51,204 nucleotides of DNA from Asterionellopsis glacialis (lineage: Eukaryota > Bacillariophyta > Plagiogrammaphyceae > Rhaphoneidales > Asterionellopsidaceae). The notes beneath the pieces were generated by a model. That model saw nothing but the letters and a program-made list of their open reading frames with translations. It was not told the origin of the DNA and made no database searches. Every line of letters begins with the position of its first letter. Position 1 is the first letter of the stretch. Location: positions 26,312 through 77,515 of the forward strand of contig WKLE02001996.1 of the NCBI GenBank assembly GCA_014885115.2, given 5' to 3'. Below, piece by piece: positions 2,831 to 50,620 of this stretch. Made by a program: the position numbers and the translations under genes.

Positions 2831-5449
2831 TTATGCTGCAAATGCATGATCATTCTTGAAATTGACGGTATTGCTTTTCCTTGTTCTGGAAGGGAATCCA
2901 CATATCAAATCATCGTCATCTCTCTCATCATTTATCAGTGTACTTTTTTCATCCTCCTTCTTGTCTTCTTCTTCTTCAAGTACAGGGTCGTCATTACCAT
3001 TGCACGTGCATTTACTACCATCATCATCCGAATCGGAAACACAATCATCACCAAAATCAACCAATAATTCACCCAATTGATCTTGTGTCAAGACAAAAAT
3101 TGAATCACGCTCTTCACTCTTTGTAGGTGGGACGTAACTACCCACATGACTACCACGACGTACAGCTCGTCGTCCTCTTACATGAGATGGTGTCTTGTTG
3201 TTCTTGTTGTTGTTGTGTTCTTGTTCTTCTTGCGGTGGTGGTGGTTGATAATCATCAAGAGTAGCAGGAACCAAGGATAGAGTTTCCACAAGAGGTTTAT
3301 TACAATCTTTTGTAATAACTGGTGGTTGTTGATGCATCATGGATGTTACACAACTTCCACGACGTCTTACTCTACTCCGTGGTGGTGATGGTGATGGTTG
3401 ATCTTGCTGTTGGGATGGTTCAGGAGAAGTCGAAGAATAGGAAGGATATAATGCCTGCCGTTCTTCTTCTTCTTCTTCTTCTTGCTGTTGATGTGAATGC
3501 CGCATTTGCCATGGCTGTTCCTTGTCTTCATGAAGATTGGATTCCTTACTTTCTGCACTGGCAAGATCAGTATCACTATCCGTAGTAGTAGTAGTAGTAG
3601 TAATTGGAGGATAGTATTTTGTACAAGGTGGTGATGCTGATGCTACTGCCATGGATGGAAATTGTGGTGGATGTTGTTGTAACATGGTAGTGACACAACT
3701 TCCACGACGAAATGTCCTTCGACTTTGTCTTGGTGGCATAATGTCATCTTCCTCTTGCAGCTGTTTCTTCTCTGGTGGTGGTGGTCCTTGGTATTCTTCT
3801 AAAGAAGCAATAGATGGAATATGATCTACCGAAAGACTATAGTTTGAAGATTGTGATGGTGAGGATACTGTCTCTTGCTGCATTTGTTGTAGTTGATGTC
3901 CTTCTGAATCTTGTTCATCGTGGCGACCTGGTACTGTTTCTGCAAAACCTATTTGGTCCCACTGCTGCTGCTGCTGTTGTTGTGCTTCTTCTTGTTGTTG
4001 TTGCTCCACGACAGCCGCATACGAATCGTTGGCAACAGCACTATCGACAGCAGCAGTGGCATGATTATAGTCAGATGGAAATTGTGGTGCCTGTTGTTGC
4101 AACATGGTAGTCACACAACTGCCACGACGTACAGTTCGTCTTCTTGGTCTTGGACTACAATCATTATTTACCGGTTCTTCTGCTTGTTGTTGTTGTTGTT
4201 GTTGTTGCTGCTGCTGTGGTGATGGTGGTGCCAAATACTCAGGAGTAGTACTAATATTACTATCGGATGGAAATTCAGGTGGTTTTTGTTGGAACATGGT
4301 TGTAACACAACTACCACGACGTCGAGTCCTTCGTCTCATTGGTACTTCTTGTTCCTGTTGTGGCTCTGATTCTTGTTCCTGTTGTTGATGATCATTACCA
4401 TGTCCATTATAATTATAATAAGTATGCTCCATCTCATGAGTACCTTTCTTTTCAATGTGTTGTTGTTGTTGATCCTTATTCATGGTTGTTGTTGCAAGTG
4501 TTCTTGTTTCATATGCCAATGTATTTCCTAATATTTTAGAAACATTAGGATTTAATGGATCTTCCGTCAACACAACACGATCCTGTGAAGGTAATCTTGC
4601 TAAACAACTTTGACGACGAGGGACTCCATCAGCATCCGTATTTGTAGTAGACGACTCATTATTGTTGTCCTCTCCCTCTACGGTAGTTGTAGATGCAATG
4701 GTATCCATGGTACTACGTCTTGTTTGTCGCGATGAAAAAGGTGGATGAGTTTCATTGGAAGACAAGGAAGAATTGTTGTAGTATGATTCATACTGATGAT
4801 GATGATTATGATGAACAGGAGGCGATGTATCATACTCTTCTTCACAGTCTCCAGTTGCTAAATTGTTTGCCGCATGATTCGATGATGAATTAGTGTTTTT
4901 GTTGCCACCCAAAAATGACATGGCTGTACCAGAGGAATGATGACTATCGGATAATAAATCTGTATTACTTGTTGATGATGCTGTCGAAAATGCACTTGAT
5001 AATCGTCTTGTAAAGCCCATGGAAACAGCTCGTAATCTGGAAACACTCGATTTATCTACCGATTGTTGTTGATTTTGTTTTTGCAATGGATAAATATTCC
5101 CATCCGAAGCACGACGACGATTACGACGACGACTCCCACTTTGTCCAGTAGTGTTGCTATTGTCCAACGATTCTCGATGTAATTTCAAAAACTTTTGTGT
5201 TTCTGCTGACACACTTGCACTTGTCGTGCATTTATTCACTTTTAAATGTTCTTTCAATTCTTGAAATAATAAAGAATCTTCTACAAAGACGGCCGAAGAG
5301 TTATTATGAGTTGCAGTGTCCAACAGCACGGGTGTCGAGAATGTAAATGGTCCAGCAGAAGAAGACTGCTGGTGCTGTTGTTCTGATTTCCCTGGTAGAA
5401 TCAATTCCGACAAGGATGCTATACTTGATATACTTGATATTCGATTCAT
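2831..5449 (-). CDS. Low-complexity RRGSCVTTM-repeat protein, AA-terminal family
   Basis: An 872-aa single-exon protein of no family I recognise. It has no signal peptide or membrane segment and is probably cytosolic or nuclear and largely disordered. Five diverged repeats each carry Arg-Arg-Gly-Ser: RRGSCVTTM near residues 377-385, 441-449 and 581-589, RRGSCVTSM at 696-704, and RRGSHVGSY at 764-771. Several are preceded by an (E/D)Y-x-x-PPxP stretch and followed by QQxPPQFPSD. Other RRxS sites lie at RRRAS (111-115), RRLS (148-151), RRST (244-247) and RRQS (278-281). Such sites are the consensus of PKA-like basophilic kinases, so the protein may be a multisite phosphorylation substrate (inference). 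PolyQ tracts (412-422, 490-496) come from CAG/CAA microsatellites. Residues 56-70 (VEDSLLFQELKEHLK) and the C-terminus (DDLICGFPS...DHAFAA) match the protein at 9047-10234. The start at 5449 is the first Met and gives MNRIxxI, also seen in that paralogue. Confidence 0.8.
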   Translation of the reverse strand: MNRISSISSIASLSELILPGKSEQQHQQSSSAGPFTFSTPVLLDTATHNNSSAVFVEDSLLFQELKEHLKVNKCTTSASVSAETQKFLKLHRESLDNSNTTGQSGSRRRNRRRASDGNIYPLQKQNQQQSVDKSSVSRLRAVSMGFTRRLSSAFSTASSTSNTDLLSDSHHSSGTAMSFLGGNKNTNSSSNHAANNLATGDCEEEYDTSPPVHHNHHHQYESYYNNSSLSSNETHPPFSSRQTRRSTMDTIASTTTVEGEDNNNESSTTNTDADGVPRRQSCLARLPSQDRVVLTEDPLNPNVSKILGNTLAYETRTLATTTMNKDQQQQHIEKKGTHEMEHTYYNYNGHGNDHQQQEQESEPQQEQEVPMRRRTRRRGSCVTTMFQQKPPEFPSDSNISTTPEYLAPPSPQQQQQQQQQQQAEEPVNNDCSPRPRRRTVRRGSCVTTMLQQQAPQFPSDYNHATAAVDSAVANDSYAAVVEQQQQEEAQQQQQQQWDQIGFAETVPGRHDEQDSEGHQLQQMQQETVSSPSQSSNYSLSVDHIPSIASLEEYQGPPPPEKKQLQEEDDIMPPRQSRRTFRRGSCVTTMLQQHPPQFPSMAVASASPPCTKYYPPITTTTTTTDSDTDLASAESKESNLHEDKEQPWQMRHSHQQQEEEEEEERQALYPSYSSTSPEPSQQQDQPSPSPPRSRVRRRGSCVTSMMHQQPPVITKDCNKPLVETLSLVPATLDDYQPPPPQEEQEHNNNKNNKTPSHVRGRRAVRRGSHVGSYVPPTKSEERDSIFVLTQDQLGELLVDFGDDCVSDSDDDGSKCTCNGNDDPVLEEEEDKKEDEKSTLINDERDDDDLICGFPSRTRKSNTVNFKNDHAFAA
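3463..4220. repeat. Trinucleotide microsatellites inside the RRGS-repeat gene
   Basis: Several in-frame triplet arrays are present: TTC at about 3463-3481, GTA at about 3583-3602, and TTG/CTG runs around 3961-3985 and 4180-4215. They encode Glu, Thr and Gln tracts on the minus strand. Slippage here would change tract length without breaking the frame, so length polymorphism between strains is likely. Confidence 0.75.
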
Positions 5450-9046: not shown

Positions 9047-10234
9047 TTATGCTGCAAAGGCATGATCTTGAACAAATTTCCTTGTTTTTGTTCTTCTTGG
9101 TTCTGATGGGAAATCACAAATTAGATCATCTTCATCATTCTCATCTTCATGGATCGTTTCTTTCTTGTTGTTCTTCTTATCGTCATCGTCGTCTTCTTCG
9201 GAGTTCCATCTTGATGATGCTTGAGATGACCCGAAACTTGATAAACTTTTTGATGATTCGAATTCAGCCACGGTTAGTAAACTTTTCATATACAGCGATC
9301 GTTCATAGTCACTACGCCATTGGCCATTTCCACAATCATAGCTATCATCATCACTATCTATTGCTGCAGCTTCACTAAGCGTAGCCGGTGCCAAGGCTAA
9401 TTTTATAGTTGCCATTTTTTCATCTAACTTTTCCATTGATAATCTTCTATGAATACGTTCACGGAATTCAACTAAATTTTCTTTCTTTGCTGCAGCAGCT
9501 GCCTCTGCTTCCTTTTGCATTTCAACTTCCTTACTAGTTGATCGTAACATTGATTTCAAGGCACTTATACTTGGTAACGGAAAGACTGGTAAATCTTTCA
9601 TGGCACTAATACTGGCAGCTACAGCAAAGGAATCAAACTTATCTGCTGTTTGCTCTTGATTTTCTCCGCTGACGCTTGATACTTCATCATCATCGTTTTC
9701 TCGGATCGCTGAATAATCGCTGCCACTATTGACAACTCTTGTATTGGTAGTATCTAAAGATGATGAACGATGATTCTTTTCTTCTTCTTCTTGTGCTAAC
9801 CGTCGTTCGTGAGCCGGTGAAAATCTTCGTCCGATAATCGAATCGGAATGCATCCGTCGAAATGGCATTTGTTTCTTTCGTTTCAAGCGTTTTAATTGAT
9901 CTTCCTTCTTCTCCACAAATTGTTGTACAGCTTCTTGTAAACATGCATTCGTCAAAACTTTTGAAGATCGTAGTTCTTTTTGTAATTCAGACCATAATAC
10001 ATCATGTTCAATTATACATTGTATGGATTCATTGTTTGCATCGGTTGCTTGACTACCAGAATTCTGAATTATTTCACATGTCTGAGGATCCGTCGGAGAA
10101 TCATCATTGTTGCTCACTGTAAGTTGACGTGCACTTTTTGTAGCCTTGAACAACCCCTGAGCAATTTGGTCCATGGTCGTTGAAGGTGCTATTTCATTGA
10201 TTCTATTCATATTAAAACTACTACCTTTCCGCAA
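9047..10234 (-). CDS. Paralogue of the RRGS-repeat protein, AA-terminal family
   Basis: A 395-aa soluble, charged, low-complexity protein of unknown function. Two blocks tie it to the protein at 2831-5449. The first is residues 74-90 (IIEHDVLWSELQKELRS), matching VEDSLLFQELKEHLK there, and followed in both by a K-x-x-T-x-A stretch and a helix ending QxF(V/L). The second is the C-terminal tail EDDLICDFPS...DHAFAA. RRxS sites occur as RRFS (136-139) and RRLS (263-266), with RRMHS at 126-130. An Ala/Glu/Lys helix lies near 235-262 and acidic tracts at 346-370. The N-terminus offers Met1 (10234) or Met9 (10210). The latter gives MNRIxEI, which aligns with the paralogue's start. The central RRGSCVTTM repeats are absent, so the family either gained them in one copy or lost them in the other. 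A nuclear or cytosolic kinase substrate is possible but only inferred. Confidence 0.8.
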   Translation of the reverse strand: MRKGSSFNMNRINEIAPSTTMDQIAQGLFKATKSARQLTVSNNDDSPTDPQTCEIIQNSGSQATDANNESIQCIIEHDVLWSELQKELRSSKVLTNACLQEAVQQFVEKKEDQLKRLKRKKQMPFRRMHSDSIIGRRFSPAHERRLAQEEEEKNHRSSSLDTTNTRVVNSGSDYSAIRENDDDEVSSVSGENQEQTADKFDSFAVAASISAMKDLPVFPLPSISALKSMLRSTSKEVEMQKEAEAAAAAKKENLVEFRERIHRRLSMEKLDEKMATIKLALAPATLSEAAAIDSDDDSYDCGNGQWRSDYERSLYMKSLLTVAEFESSKSLSSFGSSQASSRWNSEEDDDDDKKNNKKETIHEDENDEDDLICDFPSEPRRTKTRKFVQDHAFAA

Positions 10235-27852: not shown

Positions 27853-28584
27853 ATGAACAAAATGAAAGGGGATCATCAAAAACAATTATTGGAGCCTTTT
27901 CCATCTCGGCCAACCAGTGTATTGAAAATGTCCGAAAACTTTTTTAGTAATTCATTACGAAGTTTGAAAACATCGTTACAAGCAGAGGATTCTACGTATC
28001 TAACAGCAAGTACTACCACAGGGGAAGCATCGTTATCATCAACCTCAGAGGCTTCCATGTACCAAAACTTTTCATCATCATCATCATTAGATACAGTCAC
28101 TGGTGAAAAATTAAAGGCACATGAAATGTATCCACTTCATGTAGCAAGTGTTATCAATGATGATACAGCATTCCGGCAATTGCAATCTGATTTACGTAAT
28201 TCGCATATGGTTACTAGTTACGGTGCAAGATATATAATGAAACCCATGGTGGAAAAACGGGCTGAAGAAGCAATTGAGCGACAAAGAAATGAAGAAAGGC
28301 GAATGTACAAAGAACGACAAGAGCAAGAAAAACAACAGAGATTGAAGAATGACATCGAAATACAGCAGATGCAAGAAGAACAAAGAAGAAGAGACATCTT
28401 ACTAGCGAAAGCAAAAAGTTCCAACGCTTTAATGTCAAAAGAACAAAGAGAAAAATTCCTTGCCAAGGCTAAATCTATTACAAGTCTTGCATTTTTACAA
28501 CAAAAATCAGAGGATAACGAAGAAATTATTATGCCAAAGTTACCGCCAGTGAGAAGGCGTGAATCTATGGGACGCGCTGCGTAA
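27853..28584 (+). CDS. Short coiled-coil member of the AA-terminal family
   Basis: A 243-aa soluble protein. Residues 99-115 (SVINDDTAFRQLQSDLR) match the shared block in the 872-aa and 395-aa proteins of this window (acidic residues, aromatic, then x-x-L-x-x-x-L-R/K) and are followed by a T-S-x-x-A stretch. Residues about 132-185 form a long charged helix rich in Glu, Arg and Gln, a probable coiled coil. The C-terminus has a basophilic kinase-type site (RRRES, 234-238) and ends GRAA. The N-terminal 80 residues are Ser/Thr-rich. Possible starts are Met1 (27853), Met4 and Met26 (27928). I keep the first. No signal peptide or membrane segment is seen. Function unknown; dimerisation through the helix is likely but inferred. 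Confidence 0.8.
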   Translation: MNKMKGDHQKQLLEPFPSRPTSVLKMSENFFSNSLRSLKTSLQAEDSTYLTASTTTGEASLSSTSEASMYQNFSSSSSLDTVTGEKLKAHEMYPLHVASVINDDTAFRQLQSDLRNSHMVTSYGARYIMKPMVEKRAEEAIERQRNEERRMYKERQEQEKQQRLKNDIEIQQMQEEQRRRDILLAKAKSSNALMSKEQREKFLAKAKSITSLAFLQQKSEDNEEIIMPKLPPVRRRESMGRAA

Positions 28585-29665: not shown

Positions 29666-32600
29666 TTAATACACGAGTTCAGAATATACTCCCATCACTA
29701 AGGACGCTAGAGGTACAACAAATGCCAATACGTTGCCTAGTGCCGTATTTGCTTTGACGCGATTGGCACTACTATGTGGTTGATCTTCTTCCTCCCGATC
29801 TTGTGTGATAGTACAGGGTGGTCCAACTTTAGAGCAATCACGAGAAGCGTCAGATACAATATGTTCACTGCAACAAGATAGTTCTGATTGATACTCGGGA
29901 CCTGCTCGTGAAATCGATGAACATCCTAAACCACCACATTTTCCACATTGCTTTGGACAACATGCCTTTCCCTCAACGTTTCCAAAGCGACAGAAAGGAT
30001 CAGCTTCTGAAATGATCCAACTTGAAGATTCCGAGGTCTCAGTTGGAGAGGACGTAAGACCTTGAGTAGGAGTTGATGAAGAGACTTCACTAGGGGATTG
30101 AGTAGGGGATTGAGTAGGTGACACCGAAGGATATGCCGTTGGAGACACAGAATGCATGGCGGATGGACTACTTGATGCAGTTTCCGTAGGTGAGGATGTT
30201 GGTGATACCGAGGGGGCATCTGTGAGAAGATTTGTATTGTCAACCCATAATCGATTAGCTACAGTTTCACCTGGAGCTGCAGTTTCCGGTGTTTCCTTAG
30301 TGATAATGACTACATGTTCATAGGGTACATATTGAAAGTAATAATCTCCTGTTCCTCCACCTGTAGAGCCAGTTACAAAGACCACATCTCCGCTTTTGGC
30401 AGGAGTTCCCTGACGACAAACAAGATTTCCATCTCCTTGGAAAATTGTATAATAATCACCAATAGGACCGGAATATTCTGTCGACCAAAGAATACCTTGT
30501 GAATCACCTGGTGATCCTGCATGGAGTACTAAGTTTCCATCAGTCTGCTGGTGGAGAAATGTACCCTTTGGACTTGATTCAACAATTGCGTCTGTGAGGA
30601 TAATTGTATTTTCTTCAAGTAATATAGGTGGGTCGGGCTTGGCTTCTTCGGTGAATTCGGCAATAAATCTGCGTGTGTCAGATGGGAGAACAGTTATGGC
30701 ATGTTTCTTACCCATTCCGTCAGACCACGCATTGAAGGTAAATTTCGACGATGCCGAATATTGTAACGGAGCTTCAATGTAAAATCGTTGATTTTCCCAC
30801 ACAGCAACAGTTACAGGGGTTACAACTGTTCTTCTATCAACAACTAGTTCACGATTACTGGGGATACTATCGAATTCCATGTAAACCATCCTTGGCATAA
30901 TGTCACGGGTGACGGTTGTTGACAAACCATCACTATCAGTGGCTGTCAAAATAACCTTTAGATAACTGCTAGTTGAAGCAGAGAAATCTTCTGGTTCTGG
31001 AGCAGGCAGCAAAGTAATGCCATTTCCTTGTGTTTGTGAGCCCAAGAAAGGGTGGTGATGATTCAAATGGTGCTGTTGAACCTCCCAGTGAAGTGCTCTG
31101 AAGTAAGGATGACATGTAGGAATTGCACACAAGAAGAGTTAGTTTTCTGTACCAATATTTGGATAAATGGGTGGAGTTTGATTTCGGAGATATTTGACTA
31201 ACTTACGAATCAGGGAGAATACTGCCATCTCCATGGACAGCAGATCCATAAAGAGTAAAAATATCACCAACAGCAAATGTTGTACCAACAGGAGGAGCAA
31301 TAATAGTTGGTAAAGGTCTGTCCCCAATACCTATCTCCATGGTTACAGTGTCCTCGCCACCCCGACCGTCATGGACTGTCAGAGACACTTGCTTATTACC
31401 AACACCAACAAATGTAAATGACGACTTTGCTTCGGTAGAGTCAGGGACTCCATCACCATCTGTATAATTAAATCAAAACAATGAAAATGGATAAGTAATG
31501 AACAGTCCCGCAAATGACTCGAAAACAGAGGAAAAGAATGGTCCCACTTACCAAAATCCCATTCATAATCAAGGTCATCACCATCTGGGTCACTACTTTT
31601 AGTACCATCAAACTCGATAGTCACACCATCTGGGCCACCATCCAGACTAGAAGTAATGTCCGCATTTGGTTTTCGGTTGGCATCACCAAGGTAAACATAT
31701 CGACGAACATCATGGGGAGACCTCGTCGCGTAGTACAAGGCTTGACCTTGGTTGCTGTTGTACGGACCAAAGGTCATAGCAACAACGCCCTCACCTCCAC
31801 TGATACTTTTAATAGTTTCAATTTCGTACTTGGATGTTGGTGGACTGCACGAACGGCATTCTTCACCACCTTCCCTCATAATGTTTACCTCATTGAATAT
31901 AAAGTCAGCGTAGATAAATGCACCATCATATTCGACAGGCCAAAGACCATTCGGTACGAAAGCTCCTGACGTACAGGCACCCTCGTATTGTTCATTGTGT
32001 GTGTAATAATGGAGAGGGTCATCAAAACCTCGATCTTCCATTTCTTCGCAGTCTTCATAGGGAAATTCAAATTTGTTGAAGTATTTTGTAGTATCACTGT
32101 ACCCATTGAACTTGCAAGGACCGTCCCTAACTGGCCATCCGTAGTTTGCTCCTGGAAAGTCGTCTCCACCCTCATTCAGTTCTTCCCAAACAGAAGCACC
32201 AACGTCACTGATGAGAAAGCGAACTTTGTTATCCTTTGTATTGGGGTCCATTGCAAATTTCCAAGGATTACGAAGACCACTGGCATAAATTTCAGCACAA
32301 GTAGCACCTTGTTCAGATGTTTCACCAGTTTCTCTACAACGGGGACCATCTGCGAATGGATTGTCTTCTGGAATTTCACCAGTATCCGTGATACGAATGA
32401 TAGTCCCCCACAAATTTGTCATATCTTGTGATGTAAATTCTCGATGCTGAAAACCATCGCCAATCGATACATACATCAATCCATCCTTACCAAATTGGAT
32501 CTTTCCACCATTATGCCAGTTCTTGGGGCATACAGGTGACTGTAAAATGAATGTTTCCGATGCCATATCTGCAATACCGTTATCCAACAACGTAAAGCGA

Positions 32601-33139
32601 GACAATTTGTTGACAGGACCAGTGACATAATTATCTACATCACAATTTCCATGTTTGGGCCAAGTCCAGTACGCATACATGTACCTGTTGTTTTCAAAGT
32701 CAGGATGAAAAGCTACAGATCCCATGGCACGTTCCGACCCAGTACAAATTTGATCGGAGAGATCAAGAATTAACCTTTTATTGTTTGGATCATTCTCGAA
32801 ATCCAAGAATTCCCACACTTTTCCCCATTTCATGCTAACCACCATGGTTCCAGTAGGAGTAAAAATGACGTCTGTAAAATCAGTTTGAAAAATAGAAACA
32901 GGACCAGAAATCGATGGTAAGACTTTTCGTTGCTGCGGCAGTATGCAGTTGTCAGATCCAAACATAAACATCTCTATTGCATTCTTACCAGTGATTCCGC
33001 CGCCATCAGGAATATTAAGATCCACTCTTGAATCTTCAAAGCCTTCTGGTTGGGCTACCACAAAATTTGAGGAACATGCAGCAAATAATGCTGCTACGAC
33101 TAGAAGAGACCTATTGAATAGTGTTGTCATCATCAGCAA
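29666..33139 (-). CDS. Secreted PQQ-type sugar dehydrogenase propeller with PKD-like, bulb-lectin and Cys-rich domains (three exons)
   Basis: Exons on the minus strand are 33139-31552, 31459-31207 and 31097-29666 (3273 nt, 1090 aa). Introns of 92 and 109 bp begin GTAAGT and GTAAGTT and end CAG, and phases match (1 then 2). Residues 1-29 are a signal peptide. Residues about 60-485 match the glucose/sorbosone dehydrogenase fold: NWHNGGKIQFG (207-217) holds the usual His, followed by SIGDG, GLRNPWKFAMDP (288-299) and GANYGWP (330-336). Residues about 487-580 form a PKD-like domain (SSDPDGDDLDYEWDF), continuing into a second beta domain with HPFLG. A bulb-type lectin domain lies near 773-880, with QTDGNLVLH (798-806) and QGDGNLVC (834-841). 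Then come a Ser/Pro/Thr stalk (908-972), a Cys-rich module (983-1044) and a hydrophobic tail (1069-1083), suggesting surface anchoring. A role in oxidising or binding extracellular sugars is inferred. Confidence 0.87.
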
Positions 33140-34946: not shown

Positions 34947-37024
34947 ATGATAAACAACAACAACAGTCCAGATTCTTCTGAAGTGGTTGCAGATCCATCA
35001 ACCACTTCAGTGATGACAATGCCACCTTCTGTTTGTCCTGCTACAGATGAAGCAGCCCTCCCTCCACCTTCTGATTTTCTTGGTGAGGTGGCCTCTGCTC
35101 CTTTAGACGCGGGACAAACTCAGGAGTTGGACAACGATGTGACCAAAAACTTGAAGATACTCCATAAGCAGCATCCACAGCAAGGACAAATACTGTACCT
35201 GTAACAATGTTGGGGAATGATAGTTTGGAACCTGCCTGTACTGCTCACAATTTTGAATGGTATAGAGATGATTTGAAGCTAAAGATGCCTGTGAATGGAA
35301 ACATACAAAGGAAGCAGTGGTCTGTATGATCTCTGATTAGAATTTTTTCTTCCTACAAATTCAGATATCCTCCAAGGTTGCATTTCACATCTTGATCACT
35401 TCAAACTAATGTTCCCACCTCCTGATCAACTAACACTTATTTGTACTTTAACCAACAGACAACTGAAAAAACAGGAAAACAACAAAAAAGAACTACAAGA
35501 AAAGGTGATATACTTAGATGGGTTGGAATCAATGTTTTAATCACCAGGTATGAATTTATGTCTAGAGCATCCTTGTGGAGTAACTCCCAGTTTAAGTATG
35601 GCCCTGTACTATTGTTTGGCAAGACAGGAATGACAAGACAGAGGTATGATACATTCACTAATTGCATTTGGTTTTCAGACCATCCAGGACAGAGACCAGC
35701 AATGATGACCAGCAAGGTTTACAGATGGAGATGGGTGGATGACTTTGTTACAAATTTTAATAACCATCACATGGAAATGTATACACCATCACATTGGTTG
35801 TGTGATGATGAATCTATAAGCAGGTGGTATGGGATGGGTGGACATTGGATTAACATGGGGTTGCCACATTATGTTGCCATCAATTGCAAACCAGAAAACA
35901 GATGTGAGATACAAAATATGGCTGACAGCATTAGTGGAATCATGTTGCATTTGAAAGTGGTGAAGACTACAGAACACCACTCATTACAAGTGTATGAAGA
36001 TGACAGTGGATTGTTGCATGGTACAGTTGTTTTGAAGCAGTTGACAAGGCCTTGGGCAAACAGTGACAGAATGGTGTGTGCTGATTCATATTTTGCAAGT
36101 GTCAAAAGTTGTTTTGAATTGAAGAACTTGGGTCTAAGATTTATTGGAGTTGTAAAGTTGGCAACCACAAAGTTTCCTATGAGGCATTTGTTGGAGATCA
36201 AGTTATTCAATTGTGGAGATTATCAAGGACTGTGTCATTACAAAGAGGAGGATAATGCACAAGGTGAGAAGGAAGTTGATATCATGAGCTTTGTTTGGAT
36301 AGATAGGAAGTGGCAACACTTTGTGGCAAATGCAGAAAGTTTGGAGGAGGGAACACCTTACACAAGAAAAAGATGGCAACAGGTTGACGCCAATCCTGAC
36401 TTTGTGGAGTTAACCATCCCCCAACCAAAAGCAGCAGAAGTTTATTATAGTGTATGTGGAAAGATTGATCAACACAATAGGCACTGGCAGGGTACTTTGA
36501 TGGTGGAGAAAAAAGTTGAGACCAGGAAGTGGGATTTCAGACTTAACATTTCTATTTTCTATTTGTATAGTCGACACATGGTTGGCCTATATGCAGTGCA
36601 CTACTGGAACCAGGACAGAATCATAGAGTGACTTCTATTACCTATTGGCAGAAGAACTTATTGATAATGACTTTGATGGGGTGGCAAGGAGATGACCAGC
36701 AGAAAGTACCCTACATGATGGTGATGATAGCCCAGCGATATGCACTGCACATGTACTGGCGATCCAAAATCAGGTATTGATGCACATCTGACACCAACAA
36801 AGAGAAGGAGGAAGAATAGGGACAGCACACTAACAAACCAACAACTTCAGGAAAGGTGTATGATTTGTAGTAGGAAGATGACAATGGTTTGTTTGAGTTG
36901 CAATGATGATATCAATACAGAAAATCATGTGATAAAAACACCATGGTTATGCTTCTCCAATACTGGACAAAAATGCTTTTCTGAACACTATCAGGACAAA
37001 CATAGTCAACCTACATTAAAATAG
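34947..37024 (+). pseudogene. piggyBac-type (DDE_Tnp_1_7) transposase, disrupted
   Basis: The longest piece (35441-36631, 396 aa) carries the PGBD core: ILRWVGINVLITRYE near the start, LLFGKTGMTRQRYD, then LCDDESISRWYG, VCADSYFASVKSCF and IDQHNRHWQG...KWDFRL. The Asp residues expected at the three catalytic positions are all present. After RIIE the frame stops, but another frame continues with DFYYLLAEELIDNDFDG, showing a frameshift near 36630. A later frame (36740-37024) has the C-terminal zinc-binding pattern CMICSRKMTMVCLSCNDD...C. An upstream frame (34947-35204) rich in Ser/Pro/Asp may be the N-terminus. At least two frame breaks make the copy inactive by itself, though the core is little decayed, so it is fairly recent. 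Confidence 0.8.
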
Positions 37025-46417: not shown

Positions 46418-49400
46418 TTATAACCAGGACTTGCTGCTTTTTCCTAAAACCTTTAAACAGTGTTCTTGGTCTTGTGGGTGACCCCAACCACCAAATCCTT
46501 TTGCAATGTTCCAAAAATCTCCGGTATATCTGTATATTTTTTTATTGAAAATTTTTTTCCCGTGGAAGGGGTTTGCTTCCGTGGGATTTTCACTAAAGGG
46601 TATCCAAAAGCCAGCACCATGATCATGCATACCACCCTCCGTTCCAATATGGACTGTTTGAGCCTCGCTAGGCTGTAAGACTCGACCCGGTAAAAGCTTT
46701 TTATCCATCATATGAACAACAGACCAATCCCAATTATAATCATCAAATTTACAAAATTCATCAGCATTGGCAATGAATTTTTGATAGATTGGACGTGTCA
46801 ATACCATTGGACCACTTGAAAAATGGGCAGGATACCATCCTTCCTTATCAAACAAACCAAAGTTTGGATTTTCCGTACCACCACGTGTAGGGTCCATCCC
46901 AACACCAAATAATTCATGTCCCTTTTTAGCCAACTTTCGTAAAAGATACAAACCTGTCCATACAGTTTCGTAGACGGTTGGTGCTACGATGTAATCTTCT
47001 TCCATAAATAAAAATCCATCTGCATCCTTCACTTCATTCAAATCTGTAAACACGGTCTTGATCATCCATGCAAAGTGATGTTTGGCACATGTGACTTGAT
47101 ATTCACGAGGATTCCCGTACTTGTCACCACCATAATTCTTGTTCAAAGACTCATCGTTCCCCGGAAAGGTATCAGGATGATCATAACAAGAATACGGATG
47201 GACCAATACGATCAACTTTGGAAATTCAGTCTTGAGGCTTTCGACATATTTTTTCATTTCAGGAACACTCCCATCTATAGAAACAATTAAAGGTGTTGTA
47301 TCTCGATCAAAGTCGCTGTAAATCAATGTATGCATTGCTTTTTTAAAATAGTCAACACGTTTGTAAACCATATAAACGAACGGTACCAATGGTTTCGGTC
47401 CAACCTCCTTTTCAATTTCAGAATCAGCTCTTCGAGAAACTACAACTCTTTGAGATTGTTGTAAGGTAGTGGATGCCATATCTTCTTGTCTCTTGTTATT
47501 GGTGCTAACGGAATCATCCAGCTTAACTTCACCAAAATCACCAGGTAAAATATCATATTCACCTTCATTCAACCCTGCTTCATCTTCTTTTCTTACCCTT
47601 GTCTGCTGCTGCTGCTGCTTGGATTCATCTTCCCACCCTGTGACACGAAACATTTCTAATGGGTGATTTAATTCTTCCCACATGTCTTTACAAAGTTGTG
47701 TAATACGAAATTCTTCTAGAAATAAATCTTGATTTTTCCCCTTTTTCTTATCAGACTGTGTTGCTGATAATGGACTTGGTTCTAATAAAAGTCGTAACCT
47801 CGTTCGTGTGGGGACATTATCTTGTACACCCTGACCTAAACCTCGATTATCGTCTTGTGACAAACGTCGATCTAACCAAATATCAATGGATCCCTTTTCT
47901 AGAGATGCTGTACCCTGTGCATGTTCACTCAACACAGTCATTCGTGTATTGTAATCTTCGACCGACGCCAATGTAGGCATAGGGAATACTTGACTTTGAA
48001 TAGGCATATCTTGTCGAAATTTATGTGTGTCGAAATTAAATCCATTCAAATCTGTATGGAAGACACCATCATTAGCAATATTATCACTTGTAAATCGTAC
48101 AATCCATTCATGATTGTTCATTTGAAGATTAGTTTCAAAAATAAAATCAACAACCACAGTTGCTTCTCCTCCTTTACCAATTGTCATTCGTTCAACAATT
48201 CGTCGTTTCCAATAGGGTGTAGATACGATATATCCATTCTCTTCAATCACAACCTGCTCCTCTACGATAGGATAAGGTTCTAATGTACCAGGGAAGAACA
48301 AGTAGGCACCACCTTTTCTCACTTTCCATACCATCCATTCTTCTTTGATAGGATAGGTCATAAGACCTGTTTGCGAATCAAATTTTAATTTTGAATGTGG
48401 TAACGGTTTAGATACTTCACATGGAAGTTTAGCACGTGTTGCGCGTTGAGGTGAAACTTCTACGTTACCACACCACTGTCTACGTTGCAATGGATTGTAC
48501 ACTACAACATCCATAGCCTTCCCTTCATCACCTTCAATCATACATTTATTAAAAGTCAAATCTCTTGGTTTGTTTGCTTTCCAACATGGTTCAAATTCTA
48601 TGGTTGGTTTCTTGCTTTCTCCTCCTGGTACTACTTCTTTTTCATTTCCTCCACCAAATGCATGTTGTGTACAATTGCCATAATCATGTTGTAATTTAGT
48701 ACTCATCCATTGTTGTGTATCATGTATAGCATCATACATACGTTGTGCATAATCATCTACAACATGATTCTTAGCTGTACCAGTCACACCATCATGATGT
48801 TGAAACAAACTTAGGGATCGTCGTGATTGTTGCATTTCTTCCTTTGTTGCCCCCATGGATGTAGCTGCAAATAATGATCGTTCTAACGATCTATCCAAGG
48901 CCTTATCGAAGACACGTGATGTAAAGTAACCACTCCAATAATCTTGTTCGCGATCACTATAGGTGAAGAAGCTACCCTTAAGTAATGGTGGATCAAATGT
49001 TTCTTGTACAGATTCAAAGTATTGACTGAGTGTACCAAATTGTATTTTCACACCATTTACATTTTGATTGATATAATCAAAGATTTTTTGATAATTGGTG
49101 AACTGCGCTTCCGCTTCTTCTTTCGATTGATATCTAAAGTCATCACCCAGCGGTATCAAAACACTATTCCCACGATATAATGATGCCTTTTTCAAATATT
49201 GATCCAAGAGATGCAAGGATCGTTCTTCCACATTACGTTTGGTTATAGGTTGGGGATGCTTCCCCCATGGACACCTTTCGCCATTGGTGGTATGTATACC
49301 ATTTTGTCGTGCAAAGTCATATTCACAACATACACTTGGATCTGGACCACACGTATGTGGTACATCATAGGAATAAAATGGCATGACATGTGTAAAGATA

Positions 49401-50620
49401 TCATATTCACCCACTGCCGATGTATCCCAGGTCTGACGCCATATAAATTCTAAATGTTGATGTTGAGCCAATTCCTTCTTAATGGCATAATGCACACGTT
49501 GAATCAACATGGCTTGGAACTTGTATTTCTTTAACAGGTATGCCATGGTGGGTGAGTATCCAAATGGATCTATAGCCCATCCATACTTGGGTACATATTG
49601 ATCTCCAAATGTTTGACGTATCCAATCATGTCCTTCTTGTAATTGTATTTCCATGGCATATAATTCTGTATTGGCTTCATCTGGTTGTACCCACCCACCA
49701 GTGACAAATTCTAATTGTTTCGTTTCTAATAATTTTCGTGTACGTTCTTGCTTGGCGGGTGTTTGTTCTTTCCACCACCATTCAAAGTAAGATATTTCAG
49801 CCCATATAAAGGTACGTTTTGGATCTTGTTCCAAGGCATCCGTAACAGTTGTTAAAATTTGTTTTGTTTGGCTTTGAAAATAATCATCAAATGTTTTAAT
49901 CCAACCAGGATCGCAATGTGAATGTGGTATGACATAAATATGTTGTATCGGTTCTTCTTGTGTCGTACCAATTTGTTTAGGTTGTACATCCCACCCCTGT
50001 TTCCATACACCACCATCTTTATCATCAAATGGCAATTCTTGATTCAAGACTTTCATATCAATAGTTACATTCGAATGACGCTGTGCCTTTGGATGTATAT
50101 GCTCAATCGTATCGACAAAACGTTTCGATTTCATCCATTGGCGTTTAAATGGATTGCGATTCTGTTCTTGTTGACGTACTTCCAAAGGTATTTTTCCTCC
50201 TCCTCCTCCTCCTTCTTTACCGCGCCGTAACATGGGTGACATATCCATTGGTGGATCCACCATTCGTTTCAATCGTTCTGCCTTTGCATTCTCCTCCTGG
50301 CGTTGTTGATGAAGGCGTTGATGATGATTGTGACGCATCATCATCATTTTCATTGGATTTGTCACATACTTTGTATCGTGATTGATTTCAACATTATAAT
50401 CATCGTCTGCACCATCCAAAAGACCTGAAAAATGAGTTAAGTACAATGGTAATAATAACCATACAAGAATACCTAAAGGTATCAAATACATGACGAGTTT
50501 GTTTGTTTGTACATTCTTTGATAGAAGCAAGAAGGGTGACATTCTCTTTGGAACTTGACGTCCTTGTCTTTGCTTCCGTAAAGATGAGGATGATTCTCGA
50601 CTCGATGAAACAAGTGTCAT
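46418..50620 (-). CDS. Golgi alpha-mannosidase II (GH38) fused to GlcNAc-transferase II-like domain (GT16)
   Basis: A single 1400-aa open frame without introns. Residues 1-40 are a basic cytosolic tail; 41-64 (LVMYLIPLGILVWLLLPLYL) a type II signal anchor; about 65-220 a stem. Residues 225-990 are GH38: HSHCDPGW (233-240; zinc ligands His235 and Asp237), WAIDPFGYS (348-356; nucleophile Asp351), IPLGDDFRY (489-497), FQHHDGVTGTAK (606-617; zinc ligand His609) and DRRLSQDDNRGLGQGV (917-932). A Gln/charged linker (about 1000-1075) leads to a glycosyltransferase: FMEEDYIVAP (1205-1214, metal-binding EED), LTRPIYQKF (1274-1282), CKFDDYNWDWS (1290-1300) and HIGTEGGMHDH (1324-1334). These match MGAT2/GnT II rather than GnT I, which has EDD and DWDDW. 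Man II removes two mannoses and GnT II then adds GlcNAc to the alpha-1,6 arm, so two successive steps sit on one chain. All key residues seem intact. Confidence 0.93.
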   Translation of the reverse strand: MTLVSSSRESSSSLRKQRQGRQVPKRMSPFLLLSKNVQTNKLVMYLIPLGILVWLLLPLYLTHFSGLLDGADDDYNVEINHDTKYVTNPMKMMMMRHNHHQRLHQQRQEENAKAERLKRMVDPPMDMSPMLRRGKEGGGGGGKIPLEVRQQEQNRNPFKRQWMKSKRFVDTIEHIHPKAQRHSNVTIDMKVLNQELPFDDKDGGVWKQGWDVQPKQIGTTQEEPIQHIYVIPHSHCDPGWIKTFDDYFQSQTKQILTTVTDALEQDPKRTFIWAEISYFEWWWKEQTPAKQERTRKLLETKQLEFVTGGWVQPDEANTELYAMEIQLQEGHDWIRQTFGDQYVPKYGWAIDPFGYSPTMAYLLKKYKFQAMLIQRVHYAIKKELAQHQHLEFIWRQTWDTSAVGEYDIFTHVMPFYSYDVPHTCGPDPSVCCEYDFARQNGIHTTNGERCPWGKHPQPITKRNVEERSLHLLDQYLKKASLYRGNSVLIPLGDDFRYQSKEEAEAQFTNYQKIFDYINQNVNGVKIQFGTLSQYFESVQETFDPPLLKGSFFTYSDREQDYWSGYFTSRVFDKALDRSLERSLFAATSMGATKEEMQQSRRSLSLFQHHDGVTGTAKNHVVDDYAQRMYDAIHDTQQWMSTKLQHDYGNCTQHAFGGGNEKEVVPGGESKKPTIEFEPCWKANKPRDLTFNKCMIEGDEGKAMDVVVYNPLQRRQWCGNVEVSPQRATRAKLPCEVSKPLPHSKLKFDSQTGLMTYPIKEEWMVWKVRKGGAYLFFPGTLEPYPIVEEQVVIEENGYIVSTPYWKRRIVERMTIGKGGEATVVVDFIFETNLQMNNHEWIVRFTSDNIANDGVFHTDLNGFNFDTHKFRQDMPIQSQVFPMPTLASVEDYNTRMTVLSEHAQGTASLEKGSIDIWLDRRLSQDDNRGLGQGVQDNVPTRTRLRLLLEPSPLSATQSDKKKGKNQDLFLEEFRITQLCKDMWEELNHPLEMFRVTGWEDESKQQQQQTRVRKEDEAGLNEGEYDILPGDFGEVKLDDSVSTNNKRQEDMASTTLQQSQRVVVSRRADSEIEKEVGPKPLVPFVYMVYKRVDYFKKAMHTLIYSDFDRDTTPLIVSIDGSVPEMKKYVESLKTEFPKLIVLVHPYSCYDHPDTFPGNDESLNKNYGGDKYGNPREYQVTCAKHHFAWMIKTVFTDLNEVKDADGFLFMEEDYIVAPTVYETVWTGLYLLRKLAKKGHELFGVGMDPTRGGTENPNFGLFDKEGWYPAHFSSGPMVLTRPIYQKFIANADEFCKFDDYNWDWSVVHMMDKKLLPGRVLQPSEAQTVHIGTEGGMHDHGAGFWIPFSENPTEANPFHGKKIFNKKIYRYTGDFWNIAKGFGGWGHPQDQEHCLKVLGKSSKSWL

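What the first reader, a model, noticed from the sequence alone, without database searches (positions are those of the whole stretch)
46418..50620. Two consecutive N-glycan enzymes, Man II and GnT II, fused in one polypeptide
Seen: one uninterrupted frame joins a complete-looking GH38 Golgi mannosidase II (HSHCDPGW, WAIDPFG, QHHDGVTGT, DRRLSQDDNRGLGQG) to a GT16-like domain (FMEEDY, CKFDDYNWDWS, HIGTEGGMHDH) through a low-complexity linker. Known: Man II makes the substrate of GnT II in the Golgi, and in animals and plants they are separate genes. Inference: the fusion would channel the trimmed glycan straight to the alpha-1,6-arm GlcNAc transfer and fix a 1:1 ratio. I know of no description of this fusion.
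Basis: partly seen in the sequence, partly recalled or inferred. Interest (0 to 1): 0.92.

Follow-up and report, generated by a model that had tools for sequence, protein, structure and literature searches.

The report
Diatom mannosidase II–GnT II fusion enzyme
One unbroken 1,400-residue reading frame in a likely diatom genome joins two enzyme domains that are known from animals and plants as separate proteins, and that are predicted to act one after the other on the sugar trees of secreted proteins; the same fusion was reported in other diatoms in 2025, while some distant relatives in metagenomes carry the same two domains together with further sugar-enzyme domains in one chain.

Summary
In detail: window 46418-50620 (minus) is one 1,400-codon frame with a predicted membrane anchor, a Golgi-type GH38 mannosidase II, an 82-residue poorly conserved linker and a GT16 (MGAT2/GnT II) domain. 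The catalytic positions checked are intact. In the window's assembly it gave the only GT16 match and the only Golgi-type mannosidase II match. The fusion is not new: a September 2025 review (PMC12507850) describes it in Phaeodactylum tricornutum, as a single transcript, and predicts it in other diatoms; I file this as a new member. What I add: 102 of 194 proteins examined carry GH38 then GT16; stand-alone mannosidase copies arose repeatedly within this family (single clade rejected, p 0.0004); and 19 carry the pair in the opposite order, 14 of them with further glycosyltransferase or LicD-type domains, in chains up to 2,193 aa. The coupling therefore likely arose or was renewed more than once. 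MGAT2 and MAN2A2, separate proteins, interact in a FRET study of cultured cells (PMC6453868); here the pair is covalent. Channelling is untested; no GnT I was found in this assembly; no structure prediction was obtained.

The parts
46418..50620 (-). single 1,400-codon open reading frame, Man II/GnT II fusion protein
   Evidence: own-genome hit unbroken over residues 1-1400
50441..50497 (-). predicted transmembrane anchor (residues 42-60), type II topology inferred
   Evidence: mean hydropathy 2.24 over 19 residues, the only segment over the threshold of 1.7 in the protein
48959..49942 (-). GH38 N-terminal catalytic domain (residues 227-554): H235, D237, D351, D494, plus anchor-site positions Y416, H422, P451, W452
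   Evidence: Pfam PF01074 E 8.1e-75; residue mapping
48689..48940 (-). alpha-mannosidase middle domain (residues 561-644), position H609
   Evidence: Pfam PF09261 E 1.1e-19
47843..48316 (-). GH38 C-terminal domain (residues 769-926)
   Evidence: Pfam PF07748 E 4.1e-13
47399..47644 (-). linker between the two enzymes (residues 993-1074), frame kept
   Evidence: mean identity to fused homologues 0.11 (35 of 73 rows covered over half), against 0.48-0.71 in the domains on either side
46457..47389 (-). GT16 / MGAT2 (GnT II) domain (residues 1078-1388): E1207, E1208, D1209, D1298, H1324
   Evidence: Pfam PF05060 E 8.3e-39; alignment to 5vcm; conservation

Best explanation
Window 46418-50620 (minus strand) encodes one 1,400-residue chain that carries a Golgi-type alpha-mannosidase II domain (GH38) followed by an N-acetylglucosaminyltransferase II domain (GT16/MGAT2), and that is predicted to perform both of these consecutive N-glycan steps as one type II membrane protein of the Golgi. 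Shown: one frame, both families, the catalytic positions checked intact, and no other GT16 match or Golgi-type mannosidase II match found in the assembly. Inferred mechanism: the anchored protein would bind GlcNAcMan5GlcNAc2 with the help of the GlcNAc that GnT I has added, remove the two outer mannoses, and the tethered GT16 domain would then add the second GlcNAc to the alpha-1,6 arm, giving GlcNAc2Man3GlcNAc2. The tether would keep the two activities at a fixed ratio and in one place. Real substrate channelling is possible but untested. The likely origin is a gene fusion in the diatom line, later undone several times by duplicates that kept only one half.
For: Domains and E-values. By the printed alignments, Drosophila GMII H90, D92, D204, D341 and H471 fall on window H235, D237, D351, D494 and H609, and human MGAT2 E259-E260-D261, D347 and H374 (chain position plus 28) fall on E1207-E1208-D1209, D1298 and H1324; the roles and reference numbers of these residues are recalled. 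In domain-only alignments, among 74 fused GH38-GT16 proteins with a near-complete GH38, the non-gap letters are H235 69 of 69, D237 70 of 70, D351 72 of 72, D494 74 of 74, H609 74 of 74; among 73 with a near-complete GT16, E1207, D1209, D1298 and H1324 are 73 of 73 each. The positions of the fly enzyme's GlcNAc anchor site (Y267, H273, P298, W299; role recalled) are Y416, H422, P451 and W452 here; in the 74 fused rows they hold Y 44/F 29/gap 1, H 73/gap 1, P 73/T 1 and W 74. Linker identity 0.11 against 0.48-0.71 in the domains. One PF05060 match in the 40.3-Mb assembly; three GH38N loci, of which C1073 is jack-bean/lysosomal type (270 and 249 bits against 117 to GMII) and C464 matches cytosolic/Ams1-type enzymes, leaving this one as Golgi type. 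Transcript ORF of a homologue spanning both domains (P0053). Published description in P. tricornutum and prediction in further diatoms (PMC12507850, section 9). GH47, GT10 and GH20 matches in the same assembly. MGAT2-MAN2A2 interaction by FRET in cultured cells (PMC6453868, section 12).
Against: No GnT I was found in the assembly: three queries in four searches, PF03071 at E 1e-3 and at E 10, a GT13 piece of P0172 and a recalled motif pattern, gave 0 matches. No diatom control was available, and the tool itself says that such an empty answer shows nothing; the assembly is fragmented (1,503 contigs; the two GH47 matches lie on two contigs) and introns could hide the gene. Without GnT I neither step would have its usual substrate. 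Reported P. tricornutum glycans are nearly all high-mannose, with one GlcNAc1Man4GlcNAc2 among 69 (PMC8678454, passages), so the double-GlcNAc product is not seen there; the authors say their method may miss core-modified glycans. In the whole-protein alignment A2 (80 rows, unfused ones included) the transferase positions look less uniform (for example D1298: D 50, Y 8, gap 22); I take this as misalignment because the domain-only alignment gives 73 of 73. A predicted N-terminal anchor was seen in only 56 of 102 fused proteins, part of which are fragments. Stand-alone mannosidase copies in relatives show the fusion is dispensable. No structure prediction was obtained. No enzyme activity is reported for such a fusion; the review says biochemical data are missing.
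Confidence: 0.85

Rival explanations
1. The fusion serves co-production and shared targeting only: the poorly conserved linker is cut by a Golgi protease and the two enzymes then act separately, without channelling.
For: Linker identity is only 0.11; stand-alone halves exist in relatives; recalled: many Golgi enzymes are cut in their stems.
Against: If cut, the GT16 half would lose its only predicted membrane anchor: no segment over the hydropathy threshold lies between GH38 and GT16 in any of 102 fused proteins. The four stand-alone GT16 proteins inspected for this, P0143, P0136, P0148 and P0133, each have an N-terminal hydrophobic segment of their own.
Confidence: 0.2
2. Only one of the two domains is active in the window's organism, the other being a scaffold or a regulator.
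For: One fused homologue, P0074, has changed residues around its mannosidase active site (DPGW to DVGR, IDPFG to VDGTGG) while a close stand-alone copy, P0097, with the same longest-contig length, keeps them.
Against: In the window protein every catalytic position checked is intact in both domains, and no second Golgi-type mannosidase II or second GT16 was found to take over.
Confidence: 0.08
3. It is an artefact: two neighbouring genes joined by an assembly or annotation error.
For: No transcript of this gene itself was available.
Against: The join is in raw sequence without stop or frame change; 102 of 194 examined proteins, from several sources, have the same order; a homologue is a transcript ORF marked complete (P0053).
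Confidence: 0.02

Closest known systems
Bifunctional Man II/GnT II of Phaeodactylum tricornutum and other diatoms (PMC12507850, 2025)
   Same: Type II membrane protein of similar size (1,453 aa there), Man II N-terminal, GnT II C-terminal, catalytic residues reported or found present.
   Different: Another genome; transcription of the window gene is unproven, and GnT I, reported in P. tricornutum, was not found in this assembly.
Golgi alpha-mannosidase II (GH38; Drosophila 1hty)
   Same: Zinc/catalytic positions and GlcNAc anchor-site positions conserved (roles recalled).
   Different: The last about 150 residues of the fly chain have no detected counterpart; a GT16 domain follows instead.
GnT II / MGAT2 (GT16; 5vcm)
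   Same: EED motif, catalytic Asp and His positions conserved; match covers chain positions 87-412 of 419.
   Different: No predicted transmembrane anchor of its own; tethered behind a mannosidase.
MGAT/MAN2A2 assemblies of the medial Golgi (PMC6453868)
   Same: MGAT2 and MAN2A2 are held together; here the same pair is joined.
   Different: Non-covalent association of separate proteins there, one chain here.

Membership tests
GH38 Golgi alpha-mannosidase II | GH38N, middle and GH38C domains over the curated cut-offs | tested here: met
   252.1, 70.7 and 50.5 bits against cut-offs 25, 31.1 and 25
GH38 Golgi alpha-mannosidase II | zinc ligands, nucleophile and acid/base at the fly enzyme's positions (roles recalled) | tested here: met
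   H235, D237, D351, D494, H609
GH38 Golgi alpha-mannosidase II | Golgi rather than lysosomal type: closer to GMII, GlcNAc anchor-site residues kept (role recalled) | tested here: met
   565 bits to GMII, 221 to the jack bean enzyme, 129 to a lysosomal chain of 298 residues; Y416, H422, P451, W452
GH38 Golgi alpha-mannosidase II | full length of the fly enzyme's C-terminal part | tested here: not met
   match ends at chain position 898 of 1,045; not a residue known to be catalytic, and shared with stand-alone relatives
GH38 Golgi alpha-mannosidase II | activity on GlcNAcMan5GlcNAc2 | not testable with these tools
   needs an enzyme assay
GT16 GnT II (MGAT2) | PF05060 over the cut-off across the catalytic domain | tested here: met
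   134.1 bits against 27, profile 26-349 of 349
GT16 GnT II (MGAT2) | EED motif, catalytic Asp, metal-site His (roles recalled) | tested here: met
   E1207-E1208-D1209, D1298, H1324
GT16 GnT II (MGAT2) | GlcNAc transfer to the alpha-1,6 arm of GlcNAcMan3GlcNAc2 | not testable with these tools
   needs an enzyme assay
Diatom bifunctional Man II/GnT II | both domains in one frame, Man II first, behind one N-terminal anchor | tested here: met
Diatom bifunctional Man II/GnT II | single transcript spanning both domains | not testable with these tools
   no RNA data for this genome; a homologue transcript (P0053) spans both
Diatom bifunctional Man II/GnT II | diatom host | tested here: inconclusive
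   window record unnamed; the fused hits whose source shows an organism are diatoms (that these genera are diatoms is recalled) and the window domains fall among them, but on a long branch without a supported exact place

The most novel reading that the evidence does not exclude
The diatom fusion is the simplest case of covalent N-glycan assembly lines: in organisms so far seen only as unnamed metagenome contigs, single membrane-anchored chains of up to 2,193 residues string GnT II and Golgi mannosidase II together with GT13 (GnT I/POMGnT1)-, fucosyl-, beta-1,4-galactosyl-, GT61-, GT17- and LicD/fukutin-type domains in variable sets, so that much of a medial-Golgi pathway is written into one gene, and Man II-GnT II coupling arose more than once.
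Probability: 0.5. Interest if true: 0.85.

Novelty: new member of a known kind. Interest (0 to 1): 0.5.

Why it matters
Golgi enzymes are thought to work as loose assemblies, and whether such contacts speed up or order the reactions is an open question. A natural covalent version of a pair that associates in animal-type systems would allow a clean test: compare the joined, the cut and the unjoined enzymes. That relatives repeatedly undid the fusion, while other lineages carry the same pair in reverse order and add further enzymes, turns it into a comparative experiment made by evolution. It also matters for using diatoms to make medicines with defined glycans, since one gene would likely control both steps.

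Tried and rejected
Viral origin: viral-contig scans with P0170, the window protein, alignment A1 and P0185 found no relative. Bacterial or archaeal origin: one genome-contig scan with A1 found no relative. These scans need exact short peptide patterns, so they do not exclude either.

Single origin of all couplings: in the GT16 trees P0118 and P0169 (diatom-like order and GH38) group with the reverse-order proteins; holding them with the other fused proteins is rejected (p 9e-5). The matching GH38 test does not reject joining P0118/P0169 to the reverse-order group (p 0.29), so the direction of the exchange is open. In the large GT16 tree the reverse-order group is not one clade (5 changes), because P0118/P0169 and some GT16 proteins without a GH38 match lie inside it. 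Both groups were named after the first trees had been seen, which weakens the p-values.

Stand-alone mannosidases as one ancient paralogue: rejected (11 changes for 15 of the 34 GH38-only rows, chosen by me among 33 rows; p 0.0004). Some may be truncated gene models: of the 34, 9 carry tails of more than 50 residues or an odd end, the rest mostly end 0-39 residues after the domain.

Second Golgi mannosidase II in the assembly: the two other GH38N loci turned out to be lysosomal-type and Ams1-type.

The missing C-terminal part of GH38 rests on sequence alignment alone.

NCBIfam gave nothing for the window protein and two matches far below their cut-offs for P0170 and P0179.

Literature: 10 searches. 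Only PMC12507850 was found to describe the fusion; the passages seen of PMC5225481, PMC7773692, PMC7140410 and PMC9826595 do not mention it. The RNA-seq paper cited by the review for the single transcript (PMC6156597) does not contain words beginning with mannosidase or GnT in its main text, so that statement rests on the review. The listings showed no title about multi-enzyme N-glycan chains; most subscription papers are not held.
Full report
What is there. Window 46418-50620 (minus) is a single frame of 1,400 codons without an internal stop. The open frame at this place in the assembly is 1,406 codons: a stop, six codons within an A-rich stretch, then the ATG. Residues 42-60 are the only segment over the hydropathy threshold, so a type II anchor is predicted. 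GH38N, middle and GH38C domains follow at 227-554, 561-644 and 769-926, then the MGAT2 domain at 1078-1388. The best solved relatives are Drosophila Golgi mannosidase II (E 3.4e-168) and MGAT2 5vcm (E 2.8e-18).

Are both halves likely to be working enzymes? The printed alignments place the fly enzyme's H90, D92, D204, D341 and H471 on H235, D237, D351, D494 and H609, and human MGAT2's E259-E260-D261, D347 and H374 on E1207-E1208-D1209, D1298 and H1324 (chain positions plus 28). The roles of these residues are recalled; the MGAT2 paper I tried is not held. I gathered 193 proteins in three searches: one search listed 120 of 1,814 hits, all 48, all 28 (25 of them new). With the window protein this makes 194: 102 have GH38 then GT16, 19 GT16 then GH38, 34 GH38 only, 39 GT16 only; many are fragments. 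Among 74 fused proteins with near-complete GH38 and 73 with near-complete GT16, the listed positions hold only the expected residue wherever a letter is present, apart from E1208 (E 71, D 2). A cruder alignment of whole proteins (A2, 80 rows) was less uniform, for example D1298: D 50, Y 8, gap 22; I take that as misalignment. Mean identity of the 73 fused rows of A2 to the window protein is 0.71, 0.70 and 0.63 in the GH38 domains, 0.48 in GT16 and 0.11 in the linker, the last on 35 rows. Selection therefore likely keeps both active sites, and the join varies freely. The four positions of the GlcNAc anchor site of Golgi mannosidase II (roles recalled) are Y, H, P and W here, which fits a GnT I-dependent enzyme.

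In its genome. The assembly (40.3 Mb, 1,503 contigs) holds one GT16 match, this one, and three GH38N loci. The C1073 locus is closest to the jack bean and lysosomal enzymes (270 and 249 bits, against 117 to GMII), the C464 locus to Ams1-type enzymes. So one gene would likely supply both steps. GH47, GT10 and GH20 matches are present. GnT I was not found by three queries in four searches, without a diatom control. That is unexplained: a gap in the assembly, short exons, or real absence.

Known already. PMC12507850 (Front Plant Sci, September 2025; section 9 read whole, passages; [quoted passage not shown] and Mayamaea pseudoterrestris. It proposes the same two-step reaction and notes that biochemical data are missing. 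The window gene is thus a new member of a described kind. Three of the named species are among my fused hits: N. inconspicua P0003, M. pseudoterrestris P0007, S. robusta P0016. P0053, a transcript ORF marked complete, 1,275 residues, independently shows one message in one species whose name the listing does not show.

How the fusion has fared. In the GH38 tree of 126 proteins the 34 GH38-only copies are scattered among fused ones; starred branches alone force at least 10 changes. A careful tree of 33 chosen proteins gives 11 changes for 15 GH38-only rows, and holding these as one clade is rejected (p 0.0004). Several lie beside a fused partner by name or number: Cylindrotheca fusiformis AAC.26 fused and AAC.27 not; SGBAC_005744 fused and 005745 not; Seminavis P0016 and P0073 with the same longest-contig length. 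So the fused gene likely duplicates in tandem and one copy drops the transferase. P0074 may show the complementary loss: its mannosidase motifs are changed (DVGR, VDGTGG) while the close stand-alone copy P0097 is intact. Stand-alone GT16 proteins with their own hydrophobic N-terminus also exist, among them P0143 of Attheya septentrionalis. Whether Attheya never had the fusion or lost it is open.

More than one coupling, and longer chains. One search, which scored only the GT16 part of a distant fusion (P0118), returned proteins with the opposite order. By the domains listed, 14 of the 19 GT16-then-GH38 proteins carry at least one further glycosyltransferase or LicD-type domain; two of the 19 (P0192, P0193) hold only the end of a GT16, and P0192 only the start of a GH38. 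Pfam scans of part of them give, for example: P0172 = GT2, MGAT2, GNT-I family (GT13), LicD, GH38 in 1,956 residues; P0179 = MGAT2, GT61, beta-1,4-galactosyltransferase type, LicD, GH38 in 2,188; P0170 = GT2, MGAT2, GT10, a weak MGAT4-like stretch below its cut-off, GH38 in 2,183. Relatives without a GH38 match carry GT17 (P0184, P0185). PDB sequence matches: P0179 to beta-1,4-galactosyltransferase (E 7.8e-24), EOGT for the GT61 part (3.6e-8) and fukutin-related protein for the LicD part (1e-4); P0172 to POMGnT1 (1.3e-12) and more weakly to GnT I (5e-11), so which of the two activities is meant is open; P0170 to fucosyltransferases (1e-13). GH38 catalytic positions are kept in the 18 proteins tested, except Q for H235 in P0188; the GT16 ones in 17, except D for E1207 in one and D for E1208 in 16. 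The reverse-order GH38 domains form one clade. P0118 and P0169 have the diatom order and a GH38 that groups with the diatom kind but a GT16 of the reverse-order kind; joining their GT16 with the other fused ones is rejected (p 9e-5), while joining their GH38 to the reverse-order group is not (p 0.29). Coupling of these two steps therefore likely arose or was renewed more than once. A further variant, P0070, has a sulfotransferase domain between GH38 and GT16. These are predicted proteins from mostly unnamed contigs: what organism, what acceptor and whether the chains stay whole are unknown.

How it likely works. In a FRET study of cultured cells MGAT2 interacts with MAN2A2, and MAN2A2 is called a hub of the MGAT assemblies; MGAT1 did not interact with MAN2A2 there (PMC6453868; abstract, section 12). 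The fused chain makes the MGAT2-MAN2A2 contact permanent. The likely benefit is co-localisation and a fixed ratio; true channelling is a hypothesis. It is not needed everywhere, since several relatives have separated the halves again. Against strong flux through the second step, the glycans reported in one P. tricornutum study are nearly all high-mannose with one GlcNAc1Man4GlcNAc2 among 69 (PMC8678454, passages); the 2025 review suggests that hexosaminidases remove the GlcNAc afterwards.

Verdict. Real, well conserved, probably bifunctional, and already reported as a kind in 2025. The part that goes beyond the literature I could search is the repeated splitting of the fusion and the multi-enzyme chains in unnamed lineages.

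Noticed in passing
P0170-P0192, e.g. P0172, P0177, P0179: Metagenome proteins of up to 2,193 aa join MGAT2 and Golgi mannosidase II (reverse order) with GT13-, GT10-, beta4GalT-, GT61-, GT17- or LicD-type domains; relatives P0184 and P0185 carry MGAT2, GT10 and GT17 without a GH38 match. Organism unknown; not found in scans of the viral and prokaryote collections.
   Followed up: partly
P0070: GH38, then a sulfotransferase domain, then MGAT2 in one 1,720-aa protein: a third enzyme where diatoms have the linker.
   Followed up: no
P0074 and P0097: Fused copy with changed mannosidase motifs and a close, intact stand-alone mannosidase (same longest-contig length): a possible division of labour after duplication.
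   Followed up: partly
own assembly G000: No GnT I match by three queries in four searches, although GH47, Man II/GnT II, GT10 and GH20 matches are present.
   Followed up: partly
window 2831-5449 (-), 9047-10234 (-), 27853-28584 (+): Three predicted proteins share a short ELQ/QLQ...L-type motif, and the first two end in a similar DDLICxFPSxxR...DHAFAA tail: they look like a paralogue family of unknown function (judged by eye).
   Followed up: no
window 35441-36631 (+): DDE_Tnp_1_7 transposase (piggyBac-type, name recalled), E 2.6e-27.
   Followed up: no
window 31379-33139 (-) and 29666-31132 (-): Glucose/sorbosone dehydrogenase-like protein with a weak PKD match, followed by a second frame rich in SPT-type repeats with no Pfam match, possibly one gene split by an intron.
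   Followed up: no
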